Positions 10,559 through 37,176 of a stretch of 64,000 bases of DNA are shown here, one piece after another. Under the pieces are notes generated by a model that worked only from the letters and a program-made list of their open reading frames with translations, was not told where the DNA came from and ran no database searches. This DNA is from Diphasiastrum complanatum (lineage: Eukaryota > Streptophyta > Lycopodiopsida > Lycopodiales > Lycopodiaceae). Within the stretch, counting starts at the first letter, position 1. Every line of letters starts with the position of its first letter. A program made the position numbers and the translations under genes. Where the stretch lies: positions 13,766,796-13,830,795 of the forward strand of contig CM055110.1 in assembly GCA_029204225.1 (NCBI GenBank), read 5' to 3'.

Positions 10559-12080
10559 ATTCTGTTTCTCCAACCTAGTAATTACCTCGATGAATGGTTG
10601 GGTATATTCAGACTGTTGAGCTTCAAAATTTTGCAACGTCGTATGACAAGTATGAAGTTTGGCTAACAGCTCATTGTATATTTTTGCGGGGACCGGAGAG
10701 GAATTTGGTTGAGGTGGAACTAAAAGATATAAATGAATCGTTTGTTTTTGGTCATCACACATTTTTTTCCAGGTTTTGATGACCGTTTTTTTTTCGTGAG
10801 GTCCGCTGCCTTTCTGCCTGGAGTTGGGCGTCATGGTGTTTATGTGCCTATTGCAATGTTGAGGCTAGTTGTTGGTGTGATTGGATGCTAGAACACATTG
10901 CTTCCATTTCTTGTTGCATCATGGCCATCTGCTTTCTTGCGTGATCTGCTTCTTGTTGCAATTGTTGGTTGTGGAGATCAAGGTCATGTTTAGCTTTCAT
11001 TGCGGACTCCGCTCGGCGATGGTGGTGGACTCGATCTTACAACAACCAGTTGAGATCCTTGAGTAGACCGTGCGCATGAGAAAGTGCACTGGCCGCCAAG
11101 ACATCAACCTCCTCGGGTGGCTTGCCAAAATCTGGGATCGTGTGGATGGCTCTAGATGGGGCTGCTTGAGCTTCTACATTCTGAGGCAGATTTTTATCGT
11201 ACACATTGGGGGGGTTAGCTCCATCAGGGTATCTCGTATAGGTGTGCGTGGGCGACCCTTCTCCTTGATCAAGAATGATAATTTCTTCCCCTTGAGTGTC
11301 TGGAGCCTCTTTGGCGGTATCTGCTACCACGATATCTTTAGCCTGATCTTCGATAGTTGTGTGCCTTGGTGGTGAGTTGATCTCTGTTGGAATCTGGGGT
11401 AGAGGGGGAAGCTTAAAAGATGGCCTCCGCTTGAGTAGCTCCTGGAGTCGATTGCTCTGCCTTGAAGGGCTAGTTGGAATAGTCATTGCTGCTGGTGGTG
11501 ATGCTGCTTCATCCATTAGTACGGATTCCAATTGCATGGCAAAAGGATGTTTGGGCGAGTTGGGTGCGGCTTGGACTGCTGCTTGTGCCAAAAGGTGTTG
11601 GATTGCTTGCTGCCAATCCTTATCCTCTAGCATGGACTTCTTAGATTTTGTCATAGAAGACGTGGCCTCAATGGAAGATTCTGCTGGAAAGTCCGTTGAA
11701 GGGTCAATTAGGTCGCCCACTTGGTGTATTGCTAGTTGAGTGAGAAGTGGTCCCATCACAGTCTGCTTCTTTGGAGAGAGAAGGGCCTTAAAAATTTCTT
11801 CTTGGACTTTGTGAGCCCAACTGTAGTTGTATCCATCTGGCTCAGTAATAGCAGCTAGTAGGTACATAAAGAAGGTTATTGAAATGCGAGTCTTTCTTGA
11901 CCTTGCCACCTCAAAAAGTTCACTACGAAGGTAGTAGCTCCTTGAAGAACTTCATCAACGATGGCTTCAAGTAATAGACCATCATTCGTGTGGCATGCCT
12001 TTTTAGTAATGTCCAACCCTTTTAACTTTTATTTGACCATCAACCATTGTTATATCTGGTAAATCAACCTTGTACGATGG
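10553..12080 (-). pseudogene. Unrecognised ORF, ORF3-like copy A
   Basis: A 290-codon frame (11909-11037) begins MARSRKTRISITFFMYLLAA and includes YNYSWAHKVQEEIFKALL and MGPLLTQLAIHQVGDL. It continues as a low-complexity S/T/P/E-rich region with a basic island (RLQELLKRRPSFKLPPLP). A second frame (10834-10553, MTPNSRQKGSG...) ends LEKQNC with its stop codon inside the LTR at 10558. The frame extends upstream of 11909 (ELFEVARSRK). It is truncated near 12080, where another element begins. Family unknown. The YSWAHKV...GPLLTQL segment resembles the ORFs at 1981-2892 and 57500-58690. It may be the 3' ORF of a related gypsy copy whose 3' LTR is the LTR at 9737-10558. Confidence 0.5.
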
Positions 12081-12945
12081 TGTGAAATTTCAGAGAAATA
12101 AAGACCAAGAATGGATCTACATCAGATCCTCAAGAGGTTTTGGAAGCTAGATTACATGATCTACTAATCAACCAATGATTAGATCTAGAATTAGATCAAT
12201 TCCCCATCAAAAATCTAGCAAGAACAACAAGCAAATGATTAAACTTGAGACCTACTGCCTTCACACGTGTGAAGAACAGTACCTGTACGGAATTACAGCA
12301 GAGAGTGAAGTACACAAGTGTTAGAAAGCAATAGAACCATAAAATCACAACACAAATATGAGAATACTCAAGATATGCCTCCAAAACCAAGATCTTGCCT
12401 CATTGATTTCTCAAAGTGGATCCATCATGGATTAAATACAAAAATCATCATACTCTCTCTCTAAGACACTTCCAGCACGTGTGAGACAGGTCATAGTGCT
12501 TATCCATATCCACTTTGGCTAAGATTCCATTAATTTGCCACATCATCATTGGTGGCTAGTGTTGACCTTCTAGATTCCTACAAATTAGGAGATAGGTCCT
12601 ACAATCTAGGAGATTTGACTTTTGACATGTATGAAATCTATATACAATGGATCTGAACTTTCTATATGATATTTCACACGTGGGAGACCACTCCTACCCA
12701 TGTGATATAGCATTTTCTACCACTAGAATGGTGCCAAGTGTCATAATACTACTAAACTAGTTTTTGGCCAATTTAGCCACTAGTTTCCAATTTAAATGAT
12801 ATGTACAACATTTATGATCTATCTAAATGACTTAGGCATAGATTTCACACGTGGGAACAGGCTCCACACATGTCTAATGATGATAGGTACAAGTCATTAT
12901 GGTATTTACAAGATTTAACCAAGTTAGCTTTTGCCAATTTTAACA
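12081..12945 (-). repeat. 3' LTR of the 671-aa ORF element
   Basis: Begins TGTGAAATTTC and ends TTTTAACA on the plus strand. It carries a 16-bp perfect palindrome CTTCACACGTGTGAAG at 12259-12274 and further CACGTG-type sites near 12475, 12676 and 12848. The 64-aa ORF inside it is identical in both LTRs simply because the LTRs are. Confidence 0.95.
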
Positions 12946-12956
12946 CTCCTCCTCAA
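12946..12956 (-). promoter_or_regulatory. Polypurine tract
   Basis: Minus strand TTTTGAGGAGGAG immediately precedes the 3' LTR start TGTTAAAATTGG. This is the expected plus-strand primer for reverse transcription and confirms the orientation. Confidence 0.75.
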
Positions 12957-13062
12957 AACTAACTTGATACATCTATGGTACATCTATTTACAACACTTAA
13001 GGCTGATCATTGCAGGTTCATAGGTGTGAAGATCAGCCAATGAGTTTGATGAAGATCCAAGA

Positions 13063-15078
13063 TCACCATATCCATGATAGTGCCTCCTTGATGTTGACTT
13101 CTTTGATGAACTTGAGAGCTTTGCACCACTTGATCACTTTTTCCATTGATTTGTTCCATCCTTGAAACATATGGTTGATCCAAAAGCTCAAAAATAGCTG
13201 AAATTCCATGAGAAAATAAAGAGTCCTTCTTGACTCATAAGGATCACAAAGATCCAACATCATGTTACCAAGATCTCGAGAATTTGGCTCATCAACATTG
13301 GCAAGACTATGCATGCTATAATAACCAAGAGTTCGCATCATATCTTCATGCTTGATTTCCATTCTAATCTCAGATCTAATGAGGCTAAATACTTTATTAT
13401 GGAGATAAGTGTCCTTAGAGGATGATTCACTTACTCTCATAAAGAGTTTACAATTTGCCTCAATACATGAAAAAAGACAAATTTTCATACTATGAATGAG
13501 CAAATCACTCTTGCTCTTGCAAGATTCAAGAGCATACATTTGATGAAATAACCATTTGCTTTCTAATTGATCTAAAATCAATTTGAAATCATTAAGAACA
13601 TCAACTATGTTCTCAAGAGAGACACCATACTCAACTAGTATTGCTTTACTCCAACTTTGAGTTGCAAAAGTCTCACCAAAGCAAATTGATTCACCAAATG
13701 ACATATGAGAAGAAAGCATAAGATCTATACCACTTGAAATGTGCTCCTCTTTCCCTTGAAATGTGAGCCATATGAGCTCAACCATGTCTCTTGATATTCT
13801 TCTTGGAATCATAACTTGAGAAGGACTCTCCTCCTCAATCCTTGGCATACTTGAACCTTGAGATGACTCCTTAAGATCAACTTCTTGGTGCTCCTCCTTG
13901 ATGAAAATCCGAGACCTCCATGTCTCATAATGATCACAATAAACATGACCATACATTGTGCACTTTCTATGATCAACAATATTACTTATGCTAGAACCAT
14001 AAGTCCAAAAATCACCACAACTTGACATGATTTTTCTAATATTGAAATCAAGAACTATTTCCATCTCAATAAGGCTAACTACTTGCTTATGGATATAAGT
14101 GTCCACTTTGGATGCTTCACTTATTCTCATAAGAAGTTTACAACTTGCCTTTAAAATTGAAAATTTACAACTTTCAACATTATGAATGAACACATCATTC
14201 ATGATCTTATTGAAACCAAAAGAAAATACATCATGAAGACATTTCCATTTCCTTGTCTTTATACTCAATGTAAGTTTACAAGGAAAACATGCTTTGCTAT
14301 CTATTAAGGCATCACACTCAACTAGTATTGCCTTAATCCACATTTGAGATACAAAAATCTCTTCAAAGCAAAATAGTTCTTCAAAAGATGTCATGAGAGC
14401 ATAAATGGAACTATTTTCATTTTGTGATTGCTCCTCCTTAATTTTGCTTGGTTTCTCTTGGATCATAACAATAACTTTGAACTTATCCAAAGTTCCAAAC
14501 AAAATGCTTTCCAAGAACATGAAATAAATCCAAGTGACATTCATGAAAGAAACATCTTTCTTTGCATCTTGAACCAAACAATGCACTTCCAAATGAAAAA
14601 CTTCTAGAGGTTTGAAATGTGTGGTGATGGATTTTTGAAGACAACTCTTGTAAGTCCTTGTGAGACTCCAAGCCTCATGCATCTTTCCACAAAGGAAACA
14701 CATTTCCTTAGATTTGTCCTTCTTGCCTTTGCATTTTGCACTTGAATCTCCATCCTTCACCTCGGCCCCCTTGCTTTGGTTCTCCTTGGATGGATTGGTC
14801 TTCATTTTGTAGCATCTTGAGACAAAATGATCTCTCTTGCCACAAAGGTTGCATTTAGGATCCTTACTTGCCTCCAATAGGTTGCCACCTATTGATGCCA
14901 TGATGAGGAAGTAAAACTTTGTGATATGACTTTTCAAAATGTAATTTGTGACTCTCAAGAAACTAGATTTGAACACATTCAACAATCTAGAAGGATCTAC
15001 ACAAGACAAATTTTGAATCATATCTCTTTTCAACCTAGTCAATTGGAAACTAATTTTTGCTTTGATCACTAAGACCAA
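13063..15078 (-). CDS. 671-aa zinc-knuckle protein with tandem duplicated domain (novel)
   Basis: Single intact ORF, 671 codons. The more likely start is Met60 (14901, MASIGGNLLEASKDPKC), because the first 59 residues look like leader. A canonical retroviral-type knuckle CNLCGKRDHFVSRC (residues 76-89, CX2CX4HX4C) is followed by a Lys-rich stretch and a second degenerate Cys/His cluster (127-146, CX2CX3HX11C). The rest is a duplicated module: residues about 225-390 align with about 452-620. Matched pieces are SQMWIKAILVEC / TQSWSKAILVEY, SCKLLMRISEASKVDTYIHK / NCKLFMRVSESSSKDTYLHN and CDHYETWRSR / CDPYESRRTL. There is no RT, protease or integrase motif. By position it takes the place of gag, and the knuckle suggests nucleic-acid binding. 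The duplicated module is of no family I know. The lack of stops over 2 kb and the near-identical LTRs suggest recent activity. Confidence 0.85.
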   Translation of the reverse strand: MVLVIKAKISFQLTRLKRDMIQNLSCVDPSRLLNVFKSSFLRVTNYILKSHITKFYFLIMASIGGNLLEASKDPKCNLCGKRDHFVSRCYKMKTNPSKENQSKGAEVKDGDSSAKCKGKKDKSKEMCFLCGKMHEAWSLTRTYKSCLQKSITTHFKPLEVFHLEVHCLVQDAKKDVSFMNVTWIYFMFLESILFGTLDKFKVIVMIQEKPSKIKEEQSQNENSSIYALMTSFEELFCFEEIFVSQMWIKAILVECDALIDSKACFPCKLTLSIKTRKWKCLHDVFSFGFNKIMNDVFIHNVESCKFSILKASCKLLMRISEASKVDTYIHKQVVSLIEMEIVLDFNIRKIMSSCGDFWTYGSSISNIVDHRKCTMYGHVYCDHYETWRSRIFIKEEHQEVDLKESSQGSSMPRIEEESPSQVMIPRRISRDMVELIWLTFQGKEEHISSGIDLMLSSHMSFGESICFGETFATQSWSKAILVEYGVSLENIVDVLNDFKLILDQLESKWLFHQMYALESCKSKSDLLIHSMKICLFSCIEANCKLFMRVSESSSKDTYLHNKVFSLIRSEIRMEIKHEDMMRTLGYYSMHSLANVDEPNSRDLGNMMLDLCDPYESRRTLYFLMEFQLFLSFWINHMFQGWNKSMEKVIKWCKALKFIKEVNIKEALSWIW

Positions 15079-16916
15079 AGCACTCTATCAAATCACAAAA
15101 ATCAGATTCAAACACCCCTATTGGACTCAACAAACACCAATGACTCTTTCTTTTGAGAGTTGGAATGGATTTGAAAAGATTTGACTCCTAGATTTTTCTT
15201 TTCTCTTGACTAGTTCACTCAACTTTTGATATTCTTGAACAAAGGATGGGTTTTGTTTCAAATACTTGAAAATCAAACTCAATCACTTCTTTTGGACTCA
15301 CTCTTGACCCAAATAATCTCACTCTTAAGATTTTGATTGAATTTGATTTGATTTGACAACAAATTAAACCACTAACTTTCACAAAAAAAAAAAAAAAATG
15401 ATCTACACTAGATCACATAAACTTGACATGTATACTTGATTCAAACACACAAAGATCAGATCCAATCACGCCTTTTGGAATCCTCTTGACCCAAATAATC
15501 TCACTCTTGAGATTTGGAATGGACATGAAATGGTTTGATAACAATCTATGTCAATAATTTTTCACCAAGCTTAAAAATTAGACATCTAGAGATTCACAAA
15601 GATCCCAACCATGTATGAACACTCAAATATGGACTCCTCCTTGTTCTATACTCCCAATGGGATCACAACTTGACCCTCACCCTCTCACAAAGAAAGTTGA
15701 ATTAGAACTTATTTGAGTTTCATACATACAATGTCAAATTGTGCTCAAAAATTGAATTCATTCACCCCTATTGGACTCCACCAAGTACCAATGACTCTAC
15801 CTCTTTAGAGTTGGAATGAAATTCAAAAATGTGATACTTCTCTCTCACTAAGATATGTTCTTACAAAGAGCTAATGCCACTTAGCAAGATTTGATCACAA
15901 TGAAGGAGACAATTTTTCCACCAAAGTCAAGAAATGAGTTACTAGAACTTGCCCTCTACAAAGGAAGGAACTCTTAGGATTTTTGGATCAAACACTACAC
16001 ATGTGACTTACACACCTCTATGACTCTCTTTCAAGCCAAACAAAACTCAACTCTTTGAGTAGGAGTGGAACAATGTGACTTAGATCTCAAAAATCACTTC
16101 TAGAACTCTCCAACAATGCTTATCACTTGTATTGGTAGATTTTGCCTTTATGAGTGTTTGTGCTCTAGAAATTCACTTAAGATTTCACTTGGAGGACTTA
16201 TCCAAGGCTGACTTCTAGCACTTAGATGCTTCTAGTCTCAACCCTTTCACTCTTGAACACATCTAGAGTGAAGATACAATGGATTTCAATCTCTTCCCTT
16301 GCAAATCACTCCTTAATCTATGGTTTTTGGCAATCTTTCACTCTCAACTTTAATGCACACCCAAAGCATATGAAGATCAGCTTTAATGTACTGTAATAAA
16401 GATTCAAATCATCTATATGATTGATCTATACCAAGAACAAATCAAAGGAATAGAAACAATGCATTACAAAGCTTGAAAAATGCACTAGATTGACTAGTTT
16501 TGGGTGTATGAGGCATTAAATGCACCAAAACTGAATTTTATTGCTCATAACAGGTTATGTACGGCCTCACACGTGTGGTAAGTACACATGAAGCCCACAA
16601 AAATATTTGGTACAAATATAATGATTCTATCTATCTATTCAAACTCGCTACCTCAAGATTAGCTAGTTTCCAAAAAACCTGCTAGTTTGGGTGTATGAGT
16701 AAGATATAGCATCAAACTGAAAAATATAGCTCCAAAACTGGTACTGTACGTCCTCACACGTGTGAAGAGTAACCCTGCATCCCACAACCAAGTTTGATGC
16801 ACAAATATCAAGGCTAACTAACTCTTCAAACTCGCCCACTCAAGATTAGTGAGTTTTCTCAAAAAACTTGCCAATCTGGGTGTTGTTTAGATCAATGCTT
16901 TAATCTCTTGTACTTG
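15079..16916 (-). other. Long repetitive leader of the 671-aa ORF element
   Basis: About 1.84 kb between primer site and ORF. It contains at least four to five degenerate copies of a module built on 'cacccctattggactc...ccaatgactct...gagagttggaatgga' (near 15110-15180, 15285-15345, 15465-15535, 15765-15830, weaker near 16020-16075). Two more CACACGTGTG sites occur near 16567 and 16755. An A16 run lies at 15384-15399. No coding frame is credible. Confidence 0.6.
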
Positions 16917-16928
16917 GCTCTGATACCA
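16917..16928 (-). promoter_or_regulatory. Primer-binding site, tRNA-iMet
   Basis: Minus strand TGGTATCAGAGC, the standard plant site complementary to initiator tRNA-Met. It directly abuts the LTR start at 16929 with no spacer. Confidence 0.93.
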
Positions 16929-17793
16929 TGTGAAATTTCAGAGAAATAAAGACCAAGAATGGATCTAGATCAGATCCTCAAGAGGTGTTGGAAGCTAGAT
17001 TACATGATCTACTAATCAACCAATGATTAGATCTAGAATTAGATCAATTCCCCATCAAAAATCTAGCAAGAACAACAAGCAAATGATTAAACTTGAGACC
17101 TACTGCCTTCACACGTGTGAAGAACAGTACCTGTACGGAATTACAGCAGAGAGTGAAGTACACAAGTGTTAGAAAGCAATAGAACCATAAAATCACAACA
17201 CAAATATGAGAATACTCAAGATATGCCTCCAAAACCAAGATCTTGCCTCATTGATTTCTCAAAGTGGATCCATCATGGATTAAATACAAAAATCATCATA
17301 CTCTCTCTCTAAGACACTTCCAGCACGTGTGAGACAGGTCATAGTGCTTATCCATATCCACTTTGGCTAAGATTCCATTAATTTGCCACATCATCATTGG
17401 TGGCTAGTGTTGACCTTCTAGATTCCTACAAATTAGGAGATAGGTCCTACAATCTAGGAGATTTGACTTTTGACATGTATGAAATCTATATACAATGGAT
17501 CTGAACTTTCTATATGATATTTCACACGTGGGAGACCACTCCTACCCATGTGATATAGCATTTTCTACCACTAGAATGGTGCCAAGTGTCATAATACTAC
17601 TAAACTAGTTTTTGGCCAATTTAGCCACTAGTTTCCAATTTAAATGATATGTACAACATTTATGATCTATCTAAATGACTTAGGCATAGATTTCACACGT
17701 GGGAACAGGCTCCACACATGTCTAATGATGATAGGTACAAGTCATTATGGTATTTACAAGATTTAACCAAGTTAGCTTTTGCCAATTTTAACA
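16929..17793 (-). repeat. 5' LTR of the 671-aa ORF element
   Basis: 865 bp, almost identical to 12081-12945. It includes the palindrome CTTCACACGTGTGAAG at 17107-17122. It would hold the promoter driving minus-strand transcription. Confidence 0.95.
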
Positions 17794-19313
17794 ATAGGCA
17801 CATGCAGCTACTAGATCTGGATCTTTGTTAGCATACAAGTTGATGTGATTGTAGCACTTTGTGAGAGCACGTGGTCATGGCACTCAAGTAGAACATTTGG
17901 TGGAGCACTCGGTTGGAACATGTGGTCGAAGCACGTTGGACCAAATTTTTACAATTTCTTTGTAGTTGACTCAAAGACCAATGTCGAATCAACTTGCAAG
18001 TGACATGGATCTCACAAAAAACTTAGATATGCACAGATATCCTAAACTCTCTACAAGGCGATCTTGAGATGGATAGATAAATTAAAAAAATTCATGCTTG
18101 AGATACTCGACAATTAGGACTGTCTGTCAATAGCTATATCCTCATGTAAAAAATTAAATGAAAGCAAATATAGAAAAAAAGATGCAATTACAAGAAAACA
18201 ACATTTTAAGAACACACATATAAAATCGAACACATAAAAAATGATAAAAATAAACAAGGAAATATACCAATTTTATAAAGAGTTAGTGAAGATTTGGTTG
18301 AAGATTTTGGTTGAAGAGAGTCGGTGCAGAAATTCAAATGGAAGCCTTGGCTAAAAAATCTCAGTTTGGACGTTCGGTTAGTTTTGGTAGTGTACTAGTT
18401 GTCGGATATAACATCAGATGTAAGATAAGAAGATTATCATCGAATGTATTTCAATCAATATGAATTAGTCAAGCATTAGACATAAGATCAGATGTGATGA
18501 GGGATTGAGTAGTTGAATATAAAATAGGGTGACTCACCAATGTGCTTGTTGGATGCAACTATCGTAGTAGTTCATCACGAAAACATCGTCAAATGTAGAT
18601 TCATCGGATGTGAACGCGTTGGATGTGAATCTATTGGATGTAGGTCGGATGCAGATCGTCGGATGTAGGTGGAATGTAGTGTCGGATGCAAACTGAATGT
18701 AGTGTCGAATGCAAATGCAAATGGGCATCGAATGGAATTGTCGGATGGAAAGGGTGGATACAAATAGCAGATGCAATTTGGCAGATGCAAAGTTGTTGGA
18801 TTCAAAATAATATTAATTTCTGTCGGATGCAATCTATCAGATGCAAATCTGTCGGATGCAATCTGTCAAATGTAATTCTATCGGATGCAATTCTGTCGGA
18901 TGCAATTCTGTCGGAGGCAATCTGTCGGATGCAAATATGTTGGATGCTCTTTTGTCGGATGCAATCTTGTCGGATACAAATCTGTCAGATGCAAATATGT
19001 CGAATGCAAATCTGTTGGATGCAATCTGTCAGATGCAAATTTGTCGAATGCAATCTGTCGCAACTTTGTGCCTACCAAAATTGGAGTGTAGAAGATTGAT
19101 TTCAAGAAATTTTAGATAGGAGTGGGTCAGTGGTTTTCTTAAACATGTGTGGTAAAATTGCACAAATCTGGATTGATTTTTGAAAGGAATTCTGATGCAA
19201 TCGTTATCTCATAGAAAAGGTGGAATGCGTGCTTGTGAAAAATATGAATGTAGAAAGAGTGTAGGAAATCAAAATCAAGAAGAACTGCTCGATTCATGGT
19301 TATATACAAGTTC
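17794..19313. repeat. Duplicated segment, part R1, copy 1
   Basis: This matches 33926-35460 almost base for base, including the 15-bp minisatellite. The left edge is the LTR end at 17793. At 19313 the two copies part: this copy carries about 840 bp (19314-20155) absent from copy 2. No confident gene is seen. The minus strand at the left edge reads ANKDPDLAAACAYL, a short coding-like stretch present in both copies. Confidence 0.9.
18590..19065. repeat. 15-bp degenerate minisatellite (TCGGATGCAAATCTG type), copy 1
   Basis: More than 25 variants of a 14-16 bp unit (T)GTCGGATGCAA(T/A)CT stand head to tail, most regular from 18825 to 19065. Because 15 is a multiple of three, an open frame (18841-19119, +) reads as repeats such as NLSDANMLDALLSDAILSD. 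I treat this as a by-product of the repeat. The homologous array is at 34735-35210. Confidence 0.9.
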
Positions 19314-20155
19314 TTGGAATGGATTCAAAAAGATTGCCAACGATGCCAATGTTTGCTGATTCCTTCAACCTCGGGTTTCCAGATCTGTGTACTATCTTTT
19401 TGAACTCAATCTTCTTTTTGCAGTATAATGGTATGTGCCCCGCTTGTCAGTTTGGCACACCTACGACCTGAACTTGATCCTTGACTGGCAATGGAAGCTC
19501 AACTTGAATCTTGATCTATCAAGACTCATACATCTATAGTTCTACAGTTCTGCTTCAGATTTTTTCTTGTTTTATTATTGTCTTTAGACTATTACTAATC
19601 TAATCTAAACAAGAAATAGGGAATCAAATTGAATCTAATCCTACTGAAATCACCAAAACAACAGAACAACATCTAACTAAAGCAAATGTGAATCCTACAG
19701 AGTGCTTATTACAAATATCACTCAACTTTTGTGAGAAGAACTCCTTAGGGAGCTGAGCACAAAGTAGCATCATCTCTAACTGGAATGATGAATCAGCCAC
19801 TAAGCCCTATACATCTACTTGATGTTAATCACAAAACCAATCCAGAAAGAGAAAAAACAAACAAAAACATTCATACACAAGTACCCAAACTAAATGCATG
19901 AAGATCGAGCATAGAAAGAGATGCAAGATGAAGGATCTTCAATAAACATTTTTGGAGCATCTCAATACAAAACATATGTTGTGGAACTCGTGAAGGAGGC
20001 TCCTATTTGTGCACACAAAGAGTGAACCCCATTCTATATTTTGAGTTCCACCTCTTGACTAGTGGATGAACCCCATTCTATAATCTTTTGGGTTCCATCT
20101 CTTACATGATAATAGGAGGCCTCTTTATTAAAAGCATTACTCAAGTTGAGAGAGT
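19314..20155. other. Segment present only in copy 1 of the duplication
   Basis: About 840 bp lacking in copy 2, where the sequence jumps from the equivalent of 19313 to 20156 at a short shared TCT. The right part (from about 19965) also matches 32798-33000. The minus strand has a coding-like stretch near 19700-19800 (SSFQLEMMLLCAQLPKEFF), but stops surround it and no family is recognised. Confidence 0.6.
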
Positions 20156-29535: not shown

Positions 29536-29540
29536 GCATG

Positions 29541-30600
29541 GCATCAGCTAACATTGTTTTCATTTCCTTTTGGATGAATTTTGTGGTAGGATACATATTG
29601 GTAGGAATGTGTTATTGCTTGTTCCATACTTTTGTAGGTTTGTTCTTGTGGAAACGAATTAAAGTTTGCAATCTATATCTCTGTAGAAAGTTTACTGTAG
29701 TGGCCTCCAAGTACATGTCACGTGTAAGTTCACTCCCAAGGGAATAGTGCTTTCCCTAGTGCGGTTAGCTTGGTTGAATGGCTTTCCTATCTAACCACAC
29801 CTAGTTAACCACCTAACTAATCACAAGCATGAACAAGCAAGGAAGGTCTCTTACACCTTCCCCTCTCTCACCTCACTAAAAACACAAGAAGATAGCAAAA
29901 GCAATTAACTAGAAAGCATTCATAAATAGCAAAAAACAACAAAAGAGAGAGATGAGAGAGTGAGGTGCAAGGATGTTCAGATTATCAAATGGGCCTTATC
30001 TCCTCCATCTATATGAACATGAAAACTGAGTACAAGAGGTGCCTTTTTATTCTTGGGGAACGCCCTGCCTTGATCTTTGATTGGGTAAATCTAAATGGCA
30101 AGGATCCTAATCCAAGCCCTTCACATGAAATCTAATGGTTTCAAATTGAGAAGGGTGCCCCTCACATAAATCATGTGAGTTTCTTTTTGGAGCATGATTC
30201 ATGTGAGTTCTTCCAAACTTAGAACCATCTCAAACTTGACTTTGAGATTTTTATTTATTTTATGCCCCAAGTTGCTTCTTCCTAGTTCTACAAGTTTTAC
30301 AGAACATATTAGCATGCTCATTGAGTTGGGCTTATACACATAGGATGCCAGTGCCCTCGCACTTATTACTCCTAACTATAGAGTGTACTGTGGCAGGAAG
30401 ATAAGAGAGAGAAAGATAGTGTAAAAGAAATTGTTACAGATGCTTGCTTTAGCTTTCATTTTATTATTTCAAGATTTTTAAGCTATTTTTTGGATGAAGT
30501 AGAGTCTTAAGAGTGTGAAAAGGGAGACATAGTTTAAAAATAGGAAGTATTGTGGGTTTTTTTGTGTTTGAGTTTACTTTCAAGTCCCTGAAATAATCGA
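29541..30600. repeat. Duplicated segment, part C, copy 1
   Basis: Matches 35637-36690 closely. The minus strand at 29541-29740 has a coding-like stretch (SELTRDMYLEATTVNFLQRY, LQTLIRFHKNKP) conserved in both copies. It leads toward the part-B frame across the insertion site. The rest is AT-rich and non-coding. At 30600 it joins part D directly, whereas copy 2 has 730 bp more, including a (GA)n tract. Confidence 0.88.
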
Positions 30601-33925: not shown

Positions 33926-35460
33926 ATAGGCACATGCAGCTGCTAGATCTGGATCTTTGTTAGCATACAAGTCGATGTGATTGTAGCACTTTGTGAGAGC
34001 ACGTGGTCGTGGCACTCAAGTAGAACATTTGGTGGAGCACTCGGTTCGAACATTTGGTCGAAGCACGTTGGACCAAATTTTTACAATTTCTCTGTAGTTG
34101 ACTCAAAGACCAATGTCTCAATTATATACAAGAATCAACTTGGAAGTGACATGGATCTCGCAAAAAACTTAGATATGCACAGATATCCTAAACTCTCTAC
34201 AAGGCGATCTGGAGATGGATAGATAAATAAAAAAATTCATGCTTGAGATACTCGACAATTAGGACTGTCTGTCAATAGCTATATCCTCATGTAAAAAATT
34301 AAATAAAAGCAAATATAGAAAAATAGATGCAATTACAAGAAAACAACATTCTAAGAACACACATATAAAATCAAACACATAAAAAAAATGATAAAAATAA
34401 ACAAGGAAATATACCAATTTTGTAAAGAGTTAGTGAAGATTTGGTTGAAGATTTTGGTGGAAGAGAGTCGGTTCAGAAATTCAAATGGAAGCCTCGGCTA
34501 AAAAATCTCAGTTTGGACGTTTGGTTAGTTCTGGTAGTGTACTAGCTGTCGGATATAACATCAGATGTAAGATAAGAAGATTATCATCGAATGTATTTCA
34601 ATCAATATGAATTAGTCAAGCATTAGACATAAGATCAGATGTGATGAGGGATTGAGTAGTTGAATATAAAATAGGGTGACTCACCAATGTGCTTGTCGGA
34701 TGCAACTATCATAGCAGTTCATCACGAAAACATCGTCGAATGTAGATTCATCGGATGTGAACGCGTTGGATGTCAATGTATCGGATGTAGGTCGGATGTA
34801 GATCGTCGAATGTAGGTGGAATGTAGTGTCGGATGCAAACTGAATGTAGTGTCGAATGCAAATGCAAATGGGCGTCGAATGGAACTATTGGTTGGAAAGG
34901 GTGGATGCAAATAGCAAATGCAATTTGGCAGATGCAAAGTTGTTGGATTCACAATAATAATAATTTCTGTCGGATGCAATCTGTCAGATGCAAATCTGTC
35001 AGATGCAATATGTCAAATGTAATTCTATCGGATGCAATTCTGTCGGATGCAATTTTGTCGGAGGCAATCTGTCGGATGCAAATCTGTTGGATGCTCTTTT
35101 GTCGGATGCAATCTTGTCGGATGCACATCTGTCAGATACAAATATGTCGAATGCAAATCTGTTGGATGCAATCTGTCAGATGCAAATTTGTCGAATGCAA
35201 TCTGTCGCAACTCTGTGCCTACCAAAATTGGAGTGTAGAGGATTGATTTCAAAAAAATTTAGATAGGAGTGGGTCAGTGGTTTTCTTAAACATGTATGGT
35301 AAAATTGCACAAATCTGGATTGATCTTTGAAAGGGGTTCTGATGCAATCATTATCTCATAGAAAAGGTGGAATGCGTGCTTGTGAAAATTATGAATGTAG
35401 AAAGAGTGTAGGCAATCAAAATCAAGAAGAACTGCTCGATTCATGGTTATATACAAGTTC
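33926..35460. repeat. Duplicated segment, part R1, copy 2
   Basis: Copy of 17794-19313. Unlike copy 1, its left flank continues into 33345-33925 and has no LTR element. The last bases join part B directly at 35460. Confidence 0.92.
34735..35210. repeat. 15-bp degenerate minisatellite, copy 2
   Basis: The same array as 18590-19065, with a few unit substitutions but equal length. The open 92-aa frame is kept (34988-35266, +). Confidence 0.9.
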
Positions 35461-35840
35461 TAAATTACTAGCTCCCACATGAGATTTCCATCTTTCGGGA
35501 ATTACCATGGGGCTCACAGAATATACATTTAGTGTATCACTAGTAATCCTCATGCTCTCAGACTCGGCTCTCAATGTCATCTCCACTGGAAGCCCTTTTT
35601 GGGTGATGAGGTACTGCATCGACACCTCAGGGCATGGCATCAGCTAACATTGTTCTCATTTCCTTTTGGATGAATTTTGTGGTAGGATACATATTGGTAG
35701 GAATGTGTTATTGCTTGTTCCATAATTTTGTAGGTTTGTTCTTGTGGAAACGAATTAAAGTTTGCAATCTATATCTCTGTAGAAAGTTGACTGTAGTGGC
35801 CTCCAAGTACATGTCACGTGTAAGTTCACTCCCAAGGGAT
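35422..35840 (-). pseudogene. Coding-like relic, uninterrupted copy (parts B and C)
   Basis: The minus frame from about 35830 reads SELTRDMYLEATTVNFLQRY, LQTLIRFHKNKPTKLWNKQ, a stop, and KEMRTMLADAMP. A shift near 35635 leads to CPEVSMQYLITQKGLPVEM, ESESMRITSDTLNVYSVSP and MVIPERWKSHVGASNLELVY. It is the pre-insertion form of the frame split at 20332/29541. Function unknown; the conserved frame across three copies suggests a once coding sequence. Confidence 0.42.
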
Positions 35841-36690
35841 TACTGCTTTCCCTAGTGCGGTTAGCTTGGTTGAATGGCTTTCCTATCTAACCACACCTAG
35901 TTAACCACCTAACTAATCACAAGCATGAACAAGCAAGGGAGGTCTCTTACACCTTCCCCTCTCTCACCTCACTAAAAACACAAGAAGATAGCAAAAGCAA
36001 TTAACTAGAAAGCATTCATAAATAGCAAAAAGCAACAAAAGAGAGAGATGAGAGAGTGAGGTGCAAGGATGTTCAGATTATCAAATGGGCATTATCTTCT
36101 CCTTCTATATGAACATGAAAACTGAGTACAAGAGGTGCCTTTTTATTCTTGGGGAACGCCCTACCTTGATCTTTGATTGGGTAAATCTAAATGGCAAGGA
36201 TCCTAATCCAAGCCCTTCACATAAAATCTAATGGTTTCGAATTGAGAAGGGTGCCCCTCACATAAATCATGTGAGTTTCTTTTTGGAGCATGATTCATGT
36301 GAGTTCTTCCAAACTTAGAACCATCTCAGACTTGACTTTGAGATTTTTATTTATTTTATGCCCCAAGTTGCTTCTTCCTGGTTCTACAAGTTTTACAGAA
36401 CATCTTAGCATGCTCATTGGGTTGGGCTTATACACATAGGATGCCAGTGCCCTCGCACTTATTACTCCTAACTATAGAGTGTACTGTGGCGGGAAGATAA
36501 GAGAGAGAATGATAGAGTAAAAGAAATTGTTACAGATGCTTGCTTTAGCTTTCATTTTATTATTTCAAGATTTTTAAGCTATTTTTTGGATGAAGTAGAG
36601 TCTTAAGAGTGTGAAAAGGGAGACATAGTAAAAAAATAGGAAGTATTGTGGGTTTTTTTGTGCTTGAGTTTACTTTGAAGTGCCTGAAAT
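35637..36690. repeat. Duplicated segment, part C, copy 2
   Basis: Copy of 29541-30600 with scattered substitutions. Single GCATG site at 35632-35636 just upstream. Apart from the relic at its left edge, nothing coding is seen. Confidence 0.9.
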
Positions 36691-37176
36691 AATCATTGAT
36701 TCTTTTTGTGATTATCCTTTGAGGGTTTTTCGAAAAATTCTTTACTTATGCAATAACAATTGGCAAAAGCCAATTACATATACATCAATGTAGTGTTCTC
36801 AAACACTTCTTGAAATTTGGTGATCCTTGAAAAGTGAAATAAATAGAATTAAAAATCTCAAAATTGGACATTCAAAACTACAAAAACTAAACACATAATC
36901 ATTAATAAAGGTAGAGGACTCCAAAATAATGTCATGCAAAAGGGATGGAATGCAGGTCATGTGCATACAGTGATTTTGCCATGGAAAATGATGACATGCA
37001 AAGTCTCAGAAGGTGGTATTGCACGCATGCAAGTAGTGTTATGATTCTTGATCCAAAAGTGGAAGTTCTTGGGCATACAAGCTTGAGAATGGATCATAAA
37101 TGATGGGAGATCCATTGCATCTTGAAGAGGCTAGTTGTGAGACTTTAGTTTTTGAAAATGAGTGGAAGGAAGGGGG

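What the first reader, a model, noticed from the sequence alone, without database searches (positions are those of the whole stretch)
12081..17793. Recently moved LTR element whose only protein is a novel 671-aa zinc-knuckle ORF
The 865-bp LTRs differ at about two positions, the primer site and polypurine tract are intact, and a 2-kb ORF is free of stops. Yet no RT, integrase or protease is present. The ORF has one canonical CX2CX4HX4C knuckle and otherwise no recognisable gag. This combines the features of a TR-GAG or LARD element with an unknown coding module, and it could be a previously undescribed retroelement class.
Basis: partly seen in the sequence, partly recalled or inferred. Interest (0 to 1): 0.86.

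Follow-up and report, generated by a model that had tools for sequence, protein, structure and literature searches.

The report
Non-autonomous copia element with relic ORF
This is one of many almost identical recent copies of a plant jumping element that has lost its own copying enzymes and carries only a long, worn-down fusion of old copia gag-pol pieces, whose reading frame has stayed open although its amino acids have drifted almost freely.

Summary
In detail: 865-bp LTRs with two differences, tRNA-iMet-type primer site, polypurine tract and a 673-codon open frame on the minus strand. Four searches of the host genome were answered. All 40 scored LTR hits are listed at 100% and all 66 scored ORF hits are intact; both lists are capped. 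Of 17 other full-length copies delimited, 16 have exact 5-bp target duplications.

The ORF is not an unknown module. About half of it aligns colinearly to copia gag-pol of the same genome: nucleocapsid knuckle, integrase piece, then a stretch leading into RT, present twice. Protease motif, integrase catalytic residues and RT active site are gone. Best reading: a non-autonomous Ty1-copia derivative mobilised by a relative's enzymes; no intact helper was shown.

Unexpected: the frame stayed open over long divergence although pN/pS is 0.8-1.0 in four comparisons, and the ORF is almost emptied of CG and CAG/CTG sites, as are its relatives' ORFs. The window copy lacks a target duplication and looks recombinant.

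The parts
12081..17793 (-). whole element, 5713 bp, TG...CA ends; no target-site duplication at this copy
16929..17793 (-). 5' LTR (865 bp); carries 4 CACGTG palindromes
12081..12945 (-). 3' LTR (865 bp), 2 differences from the 5' LTR (12120/16968, 12139/16987)
16907..16928 (-). primer binding site region TGGTATCAGAGCCAAGTACAAG; complementarity to the tRNA-iMet 3' end is recalled
15085..16928 (-). leader without a long frame, with degenerate repeats and two CACGTG; pieces of it are 67-84% identical to leaders of L038, L039, L041, L042
13063..15084 (-). 673-codon open frame with its stop codon; likely start Met62 at 14901 (612 aa)
14812..14853 (-). CX2CX4HX4C zinc knuckle (residues 78-91), in the stretch aligned to the Gag knuckle of L038
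14692..14808 (-). nucleocapsid-tail-like stretch (residues 93-131) aligned to Gag of L040
14377..14691 (-). integrase-derived stretch (residues 132-236), catalytic residues not kept
13894..14439 (-). internal repeat unit 1 (residues 216-397); residues 216-280 align to the copia stretch leading into RT
13204..13752 (-). internal repeat unit 2 (residues 445-627), same frame as unit 1, 37.5% aa identity over 176 aligned codons
12946..12958 (-). polypurine tract TTTTGAGGAGGAG abutting the 3' LTR

Best explanation
A recently amplified non-autonomous Ty1-copia LTR retrotransposon family. SHOWN: structure, copy number at least in the tens, near-identity of the copies examined, target duplications in most of them, and derivation of about half of the ORF from copia nucleocapsid-integrase-pre-RT sequence. 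INFERRED: the full-length RNA is transcribed from the LTR, primed by tRNA-iMet, packaged, reverse-transcribed and integrated by Gag, RT and integrase supplied by a copia relative with similar leader, primer site and LTR ends. INFERRED: the ORF is kept open because being translated helps the RNA (for example by sparing it from decay or by bringing it to the assembly site), with the N-terminal knuckle perhaps still binding RNA; the rest of the protein is a nearly unconstrained relic.
For: Copies: 40 of 40 scored LTR hits listed at 100%; 66 of 66 scored ORF hits about 100% with no stop; 16 of 17 delimited copies other than the window with exact 5-bp duplications; 17 of 18 aligned copies including the window with the 673-codon frame. 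Derivation: tblastn to L038 in order, knuckle 52% over 27 aa (E 1e-4), integrase 30% (E 7e-9), pre-RT stretch hit by both repeat units (E 7e-5 and 0.004); the same in L040 with E 2e-6 to 0.007. Of 16 ORF-part/copia-piece pairs aligned, 11 scored above shuffled mean + 4 SD (64-120 against means of 29-38); the other 5 did not. L040 pieces carry Retrotran_gag_2, zf-CCHC, gag_pre-integrs, rve, RVT_2; L038 pieces zf-CCHC, Pol_BBD, gag_pre-integrs, rve. Shared cis parts: L038 leader pieces 67-72% and LTR pieces about 75% identical. Repeat units: pN/pS 0.935, inside the range of stop-rejecting neutral simulations (0.63-1.08); never reached in 200 simulations each at omega 0.5, 0.3 or 0.15. Relatives: pN/pS 0.82-0.98, intervals include 1. 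Knuckle canonical in the 17 of 18 aligned copies that the script could read.
Against: No intact helper was shown: L038 and L040 are both interrupted as read, L040 shares with our element only the primer site with the first 22 internal bases and a short coding piece, and its LTR gave no match; the genome search with its pol did not complete. No expression or translation data. Residues 281-416 and 526-673 have no assigned origin. In simulations without realignment the repeat units are slightly more alike than neutral (aa identity 0.375 against an upper 97.5% bound of 0.36-0.37; mean BLOSUM 1.81 against 0.82-1.53); with realignment the excess disappears (0.353, range 0.289-0.42). Stops in relatives are 3 against about 15 for both branches, but only about 8 if the relative's own branch alone can show them (P 0.05). 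The relatives are seven hand-picked loci, 62 kb.
Confidence: 0.82

Rival explanations
1. The ORF encodes a working accessory protein, a derived nucleocapsid-like RNA-binding protein, whose body evolves fast but is under real selection.
For: The canonical knuckle is kept in 17 of 18 aligned young copies (the other not read by the script) and in L038, while four older relatives have lost the histidine: L039 and L042 to Y, L041b to Y across a frameshift, L041a to C with stops beside it. In simulations without realignment the repeat units are more alike than neutral.
Against: pN/pS 0.8-1.0 and flat codon-position counts in four comparisons; omega of 0.5 or lower not compatible with the repeat units, 0.7 reached the observed value in 1.5%; the excess likeness is gone after realignment; 24 nonsynonymous against 3 synonymous changes among young copies.
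Confidence: 0.3
2. The ORF is a new or captured coding module unrelated to retroelements.
For: No Pfam domain above cut-off, no PDB match, no protein match at E up to 10.
Against: Colinear alignments to copia gag-pol of the same genome well above shuffled controls.
Confidence: 0.05
3. The frame is open only because the element decayed recently from a coding ancestor and mutations have not had time to close it.
For: Young copies are nearly identical, mean pairwise internal difference 0.18%.
Against: The repeat units have diverged at 38% of bases without a stop, where a simple neutral model gives about 9; a neutral relic of that age would be closed.
Confidence: 0.13

Closest known systems
Ty1-copia elements of the same genome (L038, L040)
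   Same: primer site and first internal bases; order of knuckle, integrase and pre-RT segments; in L038 also leader pieces (67-72%) and LTR pieces (about 75%)
   Different: the window element lacks capsid, protease motif, integrase catalytic residues and RT core; its coding remains are fused in one frame and partly duplicated; L040 shows no LTR match
TR-GAG elements (definition seen as passages in PMC9784723 and PMC6022998)
   Same: two LTRs around a single ORF, non-autonomous, mobile
   Different: no capsid Gag domain; the ORF runs on into integrase and pre-RT remnants
TR-INT-RT and other single-ORF truncated elements of sunflower (passages of PMC9784723)
   Same: two LTRs around one ORF with remains of pol
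   Different: there the protein parts were recognised by name; here they are below Pfam detection and include the nucleocapsid knuckle
LARD (classifier rule seen as a passage in PMC6022998)
   Same: over 2 kb and no domain found by Pfam, so a domain-rule classifier would probably call it LARD
   Different: long open frame kept in 17 of 18 aligned copies

Membership tests
LTR retrotransposon | paired LTRs with TG...CA ends, primer site, polypurine tract | tested here: met
LTR retrotransposon | target-site duplication | tested here: met
   met for the family: 16 of 17 other delimited copies have 5 bp, L010 has 4 bp; not met at the window copy
Ty1-copia superfamily (derived member) | Gag, then integrase, then RT order of coding sequence | tested here: met
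   relic segments knuckle, integrase, pre-RT stretch in copia order, aligned to copia pieces of the genome
Ty1-copia superfamily (derived member) | RT phylogeny | not testable with these tools
   no RT core is left in the element
TR-GAG | ORF with a Gag domain (copia capsid, PF14223) | tested here: not met
   no such match in the ORF or in eight short frames of leader and ORF region; only the knuckle remains
TR-GAG | no RT or integrase domain | tested here: met
   no domain in Pfam, though relics below detection are present
LARD | element of 2 kb or more without recognised domains (PMC6022998 rule) | tested here: met
   5713 bp, no domain at cut-off
LARD | no coding capacity in the internal region (recalled) | tested here: not met
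   673-codon frame, open in 17 of 18 aligned copies and in all 66 scored hits of a capped list
BARE-2 type | otherwise intact polyprotein with a defective gag start (recalled) | tested here: not met
   protease motif, integrase catalytic residues and RT core absent

The most novel reading that the evidence does not exclude
The family shows selection for translatability itself: a 2-kb frame must stay open for the RNA to be mobilised while its amino acids (perhaps except the knuckle) are free to drift, in a copia group whose coding sequences have been almost emptied of the two symmetric plant methylation contexts (CG and CAG/CTG), possibly as an escape from silencing.
Probability: 0.3. Interest if true: 0.75.

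Novelty: new variant of a known kind. Interest (0 to 1): 0.5.

Why it matters
A domain-rule classifier would probably file this as LARD or unknown, although it carries a long frame of recognisable descent that is open in nearly every copy seen. If the frame is selected for being open and not for what it encodes, that is a clean natural case for asking why non-autonomous retrotransposon RNAs need translation. The many near-identical copies, plus older relatives at 7-14% divergence, make the question testable by sequence alone. The near-total loss of CG and CAG/CTG sites from the coding part of a mobile lineage is also a direct handle on how such elements live with DNA methylation.

Tried and rejected
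Protein searches for the ORF: none at E up to 1 or up to 10 with residues 40-652. A control with the copia RT of the window found 2115 proteins, among the 120 listed Taxus and Diphasiastrum entries and entries whose prefixes I read from memory as Ginkgo and pine, so plants are in that collection, though transposon frames may be masked there. PDB by sequence: 0 matches. NCBIfam: 0. Viral contigs: no relative. AlphaFold without an alignment: mean pLDDT 33, unusable, so no fold search was made. A two-row alignment of the repeat units was made; the second fold job was not used. L044, picked by its polypurine tract, looks like another copia element by its frames but has no LTR match at E 1e-10. Eight short frames against Pfam: three families at E 0.05-0.09, taken as chance.

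Considered and dropped: chance ORF; an ORF opened by base composition (the other five frames hold 30 to 72 stops); misassembly as sole cause of the missing target duplication (contig C1243 repeats the same junction with identical sequence, though it may come from the same reads).

Ten paper searches listed nothing that, by title and start of abstract, describes this element; that is the limit of what I can say about print. Seen as passages: PMC10552921, PMC9784723, PMC6022998, PMC12994199. All others only as search listings.

Dropped rows: L033 was full length by BLAST but my script did not delimit its 3' end, so it is left out; one search printed counts with its fragment included and then stopped with an error. 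Copies L009-L024 were chosen as pairs among the 40 best LTR hits, so they are biased to the youngest; L027 and L033 have LTRs up to 1.3% and 0.6% off the query.

Full report
WHAT IS THERE. The element occupies 12081-17793 on the minus strand. Its 865-bp LTRs differ at two positions; TGGTATCAGAGCC follows the 5' LTR directly and TTTTGAGGAGGAG precedes the 3' LTR. The only long frame is 673 codons, 13066-15084 minus. In 1500 Markov simulations of the internal region the longest frame was 208 codons. The other five frames of the ORF region hold 30 to 72 stops. The first Met gives 652 aa; Met62 at 14901 sits in a better start context. The 5-bp flanks do not match (GATGG, ATAGG); the right flank continues a repeat also found at 33926 in the window (95%), and the left flank does not match what lies before 33926. 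So the window copy probably joins halves of two insertions. A second contig, C1243, has the same junction with identical sequence; it may be the other haplotype or a duplicate of the same reads.

COPIES. The host assembly has 1.74 Gb in 5176 contigs. The LTR query gave 40 scored hits (3701 loose candidates), all listed at 100%. The ORF query gave 66 scored hits (34069 loose candidates), all about 100% identical, all with 673 open codons and no stop. Both lists are capped, so these are lower bounds and favour the youngest copies. Sixteen pairs of LTR hits were fetched: 15 of 16 have exact 5-bp duplications and L010 has 4 bp; LTR pairs differ at 0 to 2 positions; 15 of 16 have the full frame, L012 is cut to 560 codons (a 5-bp gap in the alignment lies there). 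L027 adds a seventeenth with a 5-bp duplication. Seven single LTR hits were looked at: three are solo LTRs (two of them with mirrored flanks; L029 holds 747 N), two are full-length (L027, L033; LTRs up to 1.3% and 0.6% off the query), one is the window duplicate and one is cut by a contig end. Eighteen aligned copies (window, L009-L024, L027) differ by 0.18% on average in the internal region, and 17 of 18 keep the frame.

WHAT THE ORF IS. Pfam, NCBIfam, PDB and the large protein collection gave nothing above threshold. The genome itself gave the answer. The LTR-end/primer-site pattern with a non-family base downstream occurs 8690 times; the 100 listed sites show many different downstream sequences, so many families share these ends. 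Three loci whose leader also begins like ours were read first. L040 encodes Retrotran_gag_2, zf-CCHC, gag_pre-integrs, rve and RVT_2; L038 encodes zf-CCHC, Pol_BBD, gag_pre-integrs and rve, while its pre-RT piece has no Pfam domain. Neither is shown intact. Our ORF hits L038 in order: residues 78-104 on the knuckle (E 1e-4), 132-236 on integrase (E 7e-9), 203-270 on the stretch leading into RT (E 7e-5), and 428-513 on that same stretch again (E 0.004); L040 gives the same pattern at E 2e-6 to 0.007. Of 16 pairs of ORF part and copia piece, 11 scored above shuffled mean + 4 SD (64 to 120 against means of 29 to 38); the other 5 did not. In L040 the stretch lies at pol residues 451-561, just before and into RVT_2, which starts at 528. 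Residues 122-131 fit the Gag knuckle of L040 and residues 132 onward fit integrase at a shared CGK, which suggests that a deletion joined the two. Against L038, integrase HLDVH reads HLEVH, and the second catalytic aspartate is lost; there is no D[ST]G protease motif and no RT [YF]xDD motif (which residues are catalytic is recalled). The internal duplication (protein score 245 against a mean of 36 and a maximum of 57 in 200 shuffles) is thus a duplicated pre-RT piece plus what follows. Residues 281-416 and 526-673 stay without an assigned origin.

RELATIVES. L038 shares leader pieces (67-72%) and LTR pieces (about 75%); L040 shares only the primer site with the first 22 internal bases and a short coding piece, and no LTR match. 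L039 and L042 share more of the leader (68-84%). L039 has a 202-aa frame 72% identical to residues 29-204. L041 holds two more relatives of the ORF, one 92% identical at the DNA level between LTRs that are 92% identical to each other and 78-80% to ours. L043 holds part of another.

SELECTION. The two repeat units differ at 38% of bases, with codon-position counts 74/65/64 and pN/pS 0.935. A simple neutral model gives about 9 stops and none is present. In neutral simulations that reject stops and are realigned, pN/pS lies at 0.63-1.08. Of 200 simulations each, omega 0.5, 0.3 and 0.15 never reached 0.935, and omega 0.7 did so in 1.5%. Against my reading: without realignment the units are slightly more alike than neutral (aa identity 0.375 against upper bounds of 0.36-0.37; mean BLOSUM 1.81 against 0.82-1.53); with realignment this is gone (0.353, range 0.289-0.42). 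Against L041a, L041b and L039, pN/pS is 0.89, 0.98 and 0.82, each interval including 1 (0.80 for L039 by another alignment). Among young copies there are 24 nonsynonymous, 3 synonymous and no stop changes, which does not differ from the neutral expectation of 0.75/0.20/0.05. The frame has therefore been held open while the amino acids drifted nearly freely. Caveats: the ORF was noticed because it is open; in the relatives, 3 stops were seen against about 15 expected for both branches, or about 8 if only their own branch counts (P 0.05), and two of the three show frame-breaking indels. The knuckle may be an exception: it is canonical in 17 of the 18 aligned copies (the script could not read the other) and in L038, but its histidine is lost in L039, L042, L041a and L041b.

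COMPOSITION. CpG observed/expected is 0.18 in the LTR, 0.13 in the leader and 0.07 in the ORF, against 0.41 or more in 107 sliding windows of the rest. CAG+CTG in the ORF number 2 against 38.7 expected; the mirror-image control GAC+GTC is 33 against 38.7; the rest of the window has 1442 against 1456. The relatives' ORFs are equally poor (L041a 2 of 35.0, L041b 1 of 24.0, L039 1 of 11.0). Of the coding copia copies, L040 pol is poor (CpG 0.05, CAG/CTG 0.17), L040 gag and L038 less so (CpG 0.06 and 0.18, CAG/CTG 0.60 and 0.28). Other stretches looked at are milder (CAG/CTG 0.50-1.02, CpG 0.23-0.54). Four of the five CpGs in the LTR lie in CACGTG palindromes, which occur 4 times against 0.02 expected. 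This fits either long exposure to methylation-driven mutation with key promoter sites kept, or selection against methylatable sites; my data do not separate these. That CHG mutation rates predict CHG depletion across plant genomes is reported in PMC12994199 (passages).

HOW IT LIKELY WORKS. RNA from the LTR is packaged and copied by proteins of a copia relative with similar ends. The ORF is translated, and translation itself, or the knuckle, helps the RNA. The partner, the transcription and the translation are inferred, not shown.

VERDICT. A new variant of a known kind: a very successful non-autonomous copia derivative. The 'unknown module' reading falls for about half of the ORF; the open-but-nearly-unconstrained frame and the emptied methylation contexts are the parts worth following.

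Noticed in passing
window 12081-12945 and 16929-17793; leader 16570, 16757: Cluster of CACGTG palindromes, mostly in extended CACACGTG context, 4 per LTR against 0.02 expected; they hold 4 of the 5 CpGs left in the LTR.
   Followed up: partly
window 12076-12080 and 17794-17798: No target duplication; flanks come from different contexts, so the copy looks recombinant; contig C1243 repeats the same junction.
   Followed up: partly
alignment of 18 copies: Distinct substitutions on the sense strand are G>A 15 against C>T 3 (P 0.03), suggesting changes made during RNA/cDNA copying more than in double-stranded DNA.
   Followed up: no
G000 C16:23769594 and C16:13923633 (L029-L032): Solo LTR with what looks by eye like copia RT coding sequence on either side (flank ends), present twice with mirrored flanks about 10 Mb apart on one contig.
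   Followed up: no
   Followed up: partly
window 11037-11951 minus: 304-codon open frame without a Pfam domain beside the element.
   Followed up: no
window 17794-41000: Mosaic of repeats copied several times (for example 17794-19314 with 33926-35461 at 95%, 29536-30598 with 35632-36694 at 98%).
   Followed up: no
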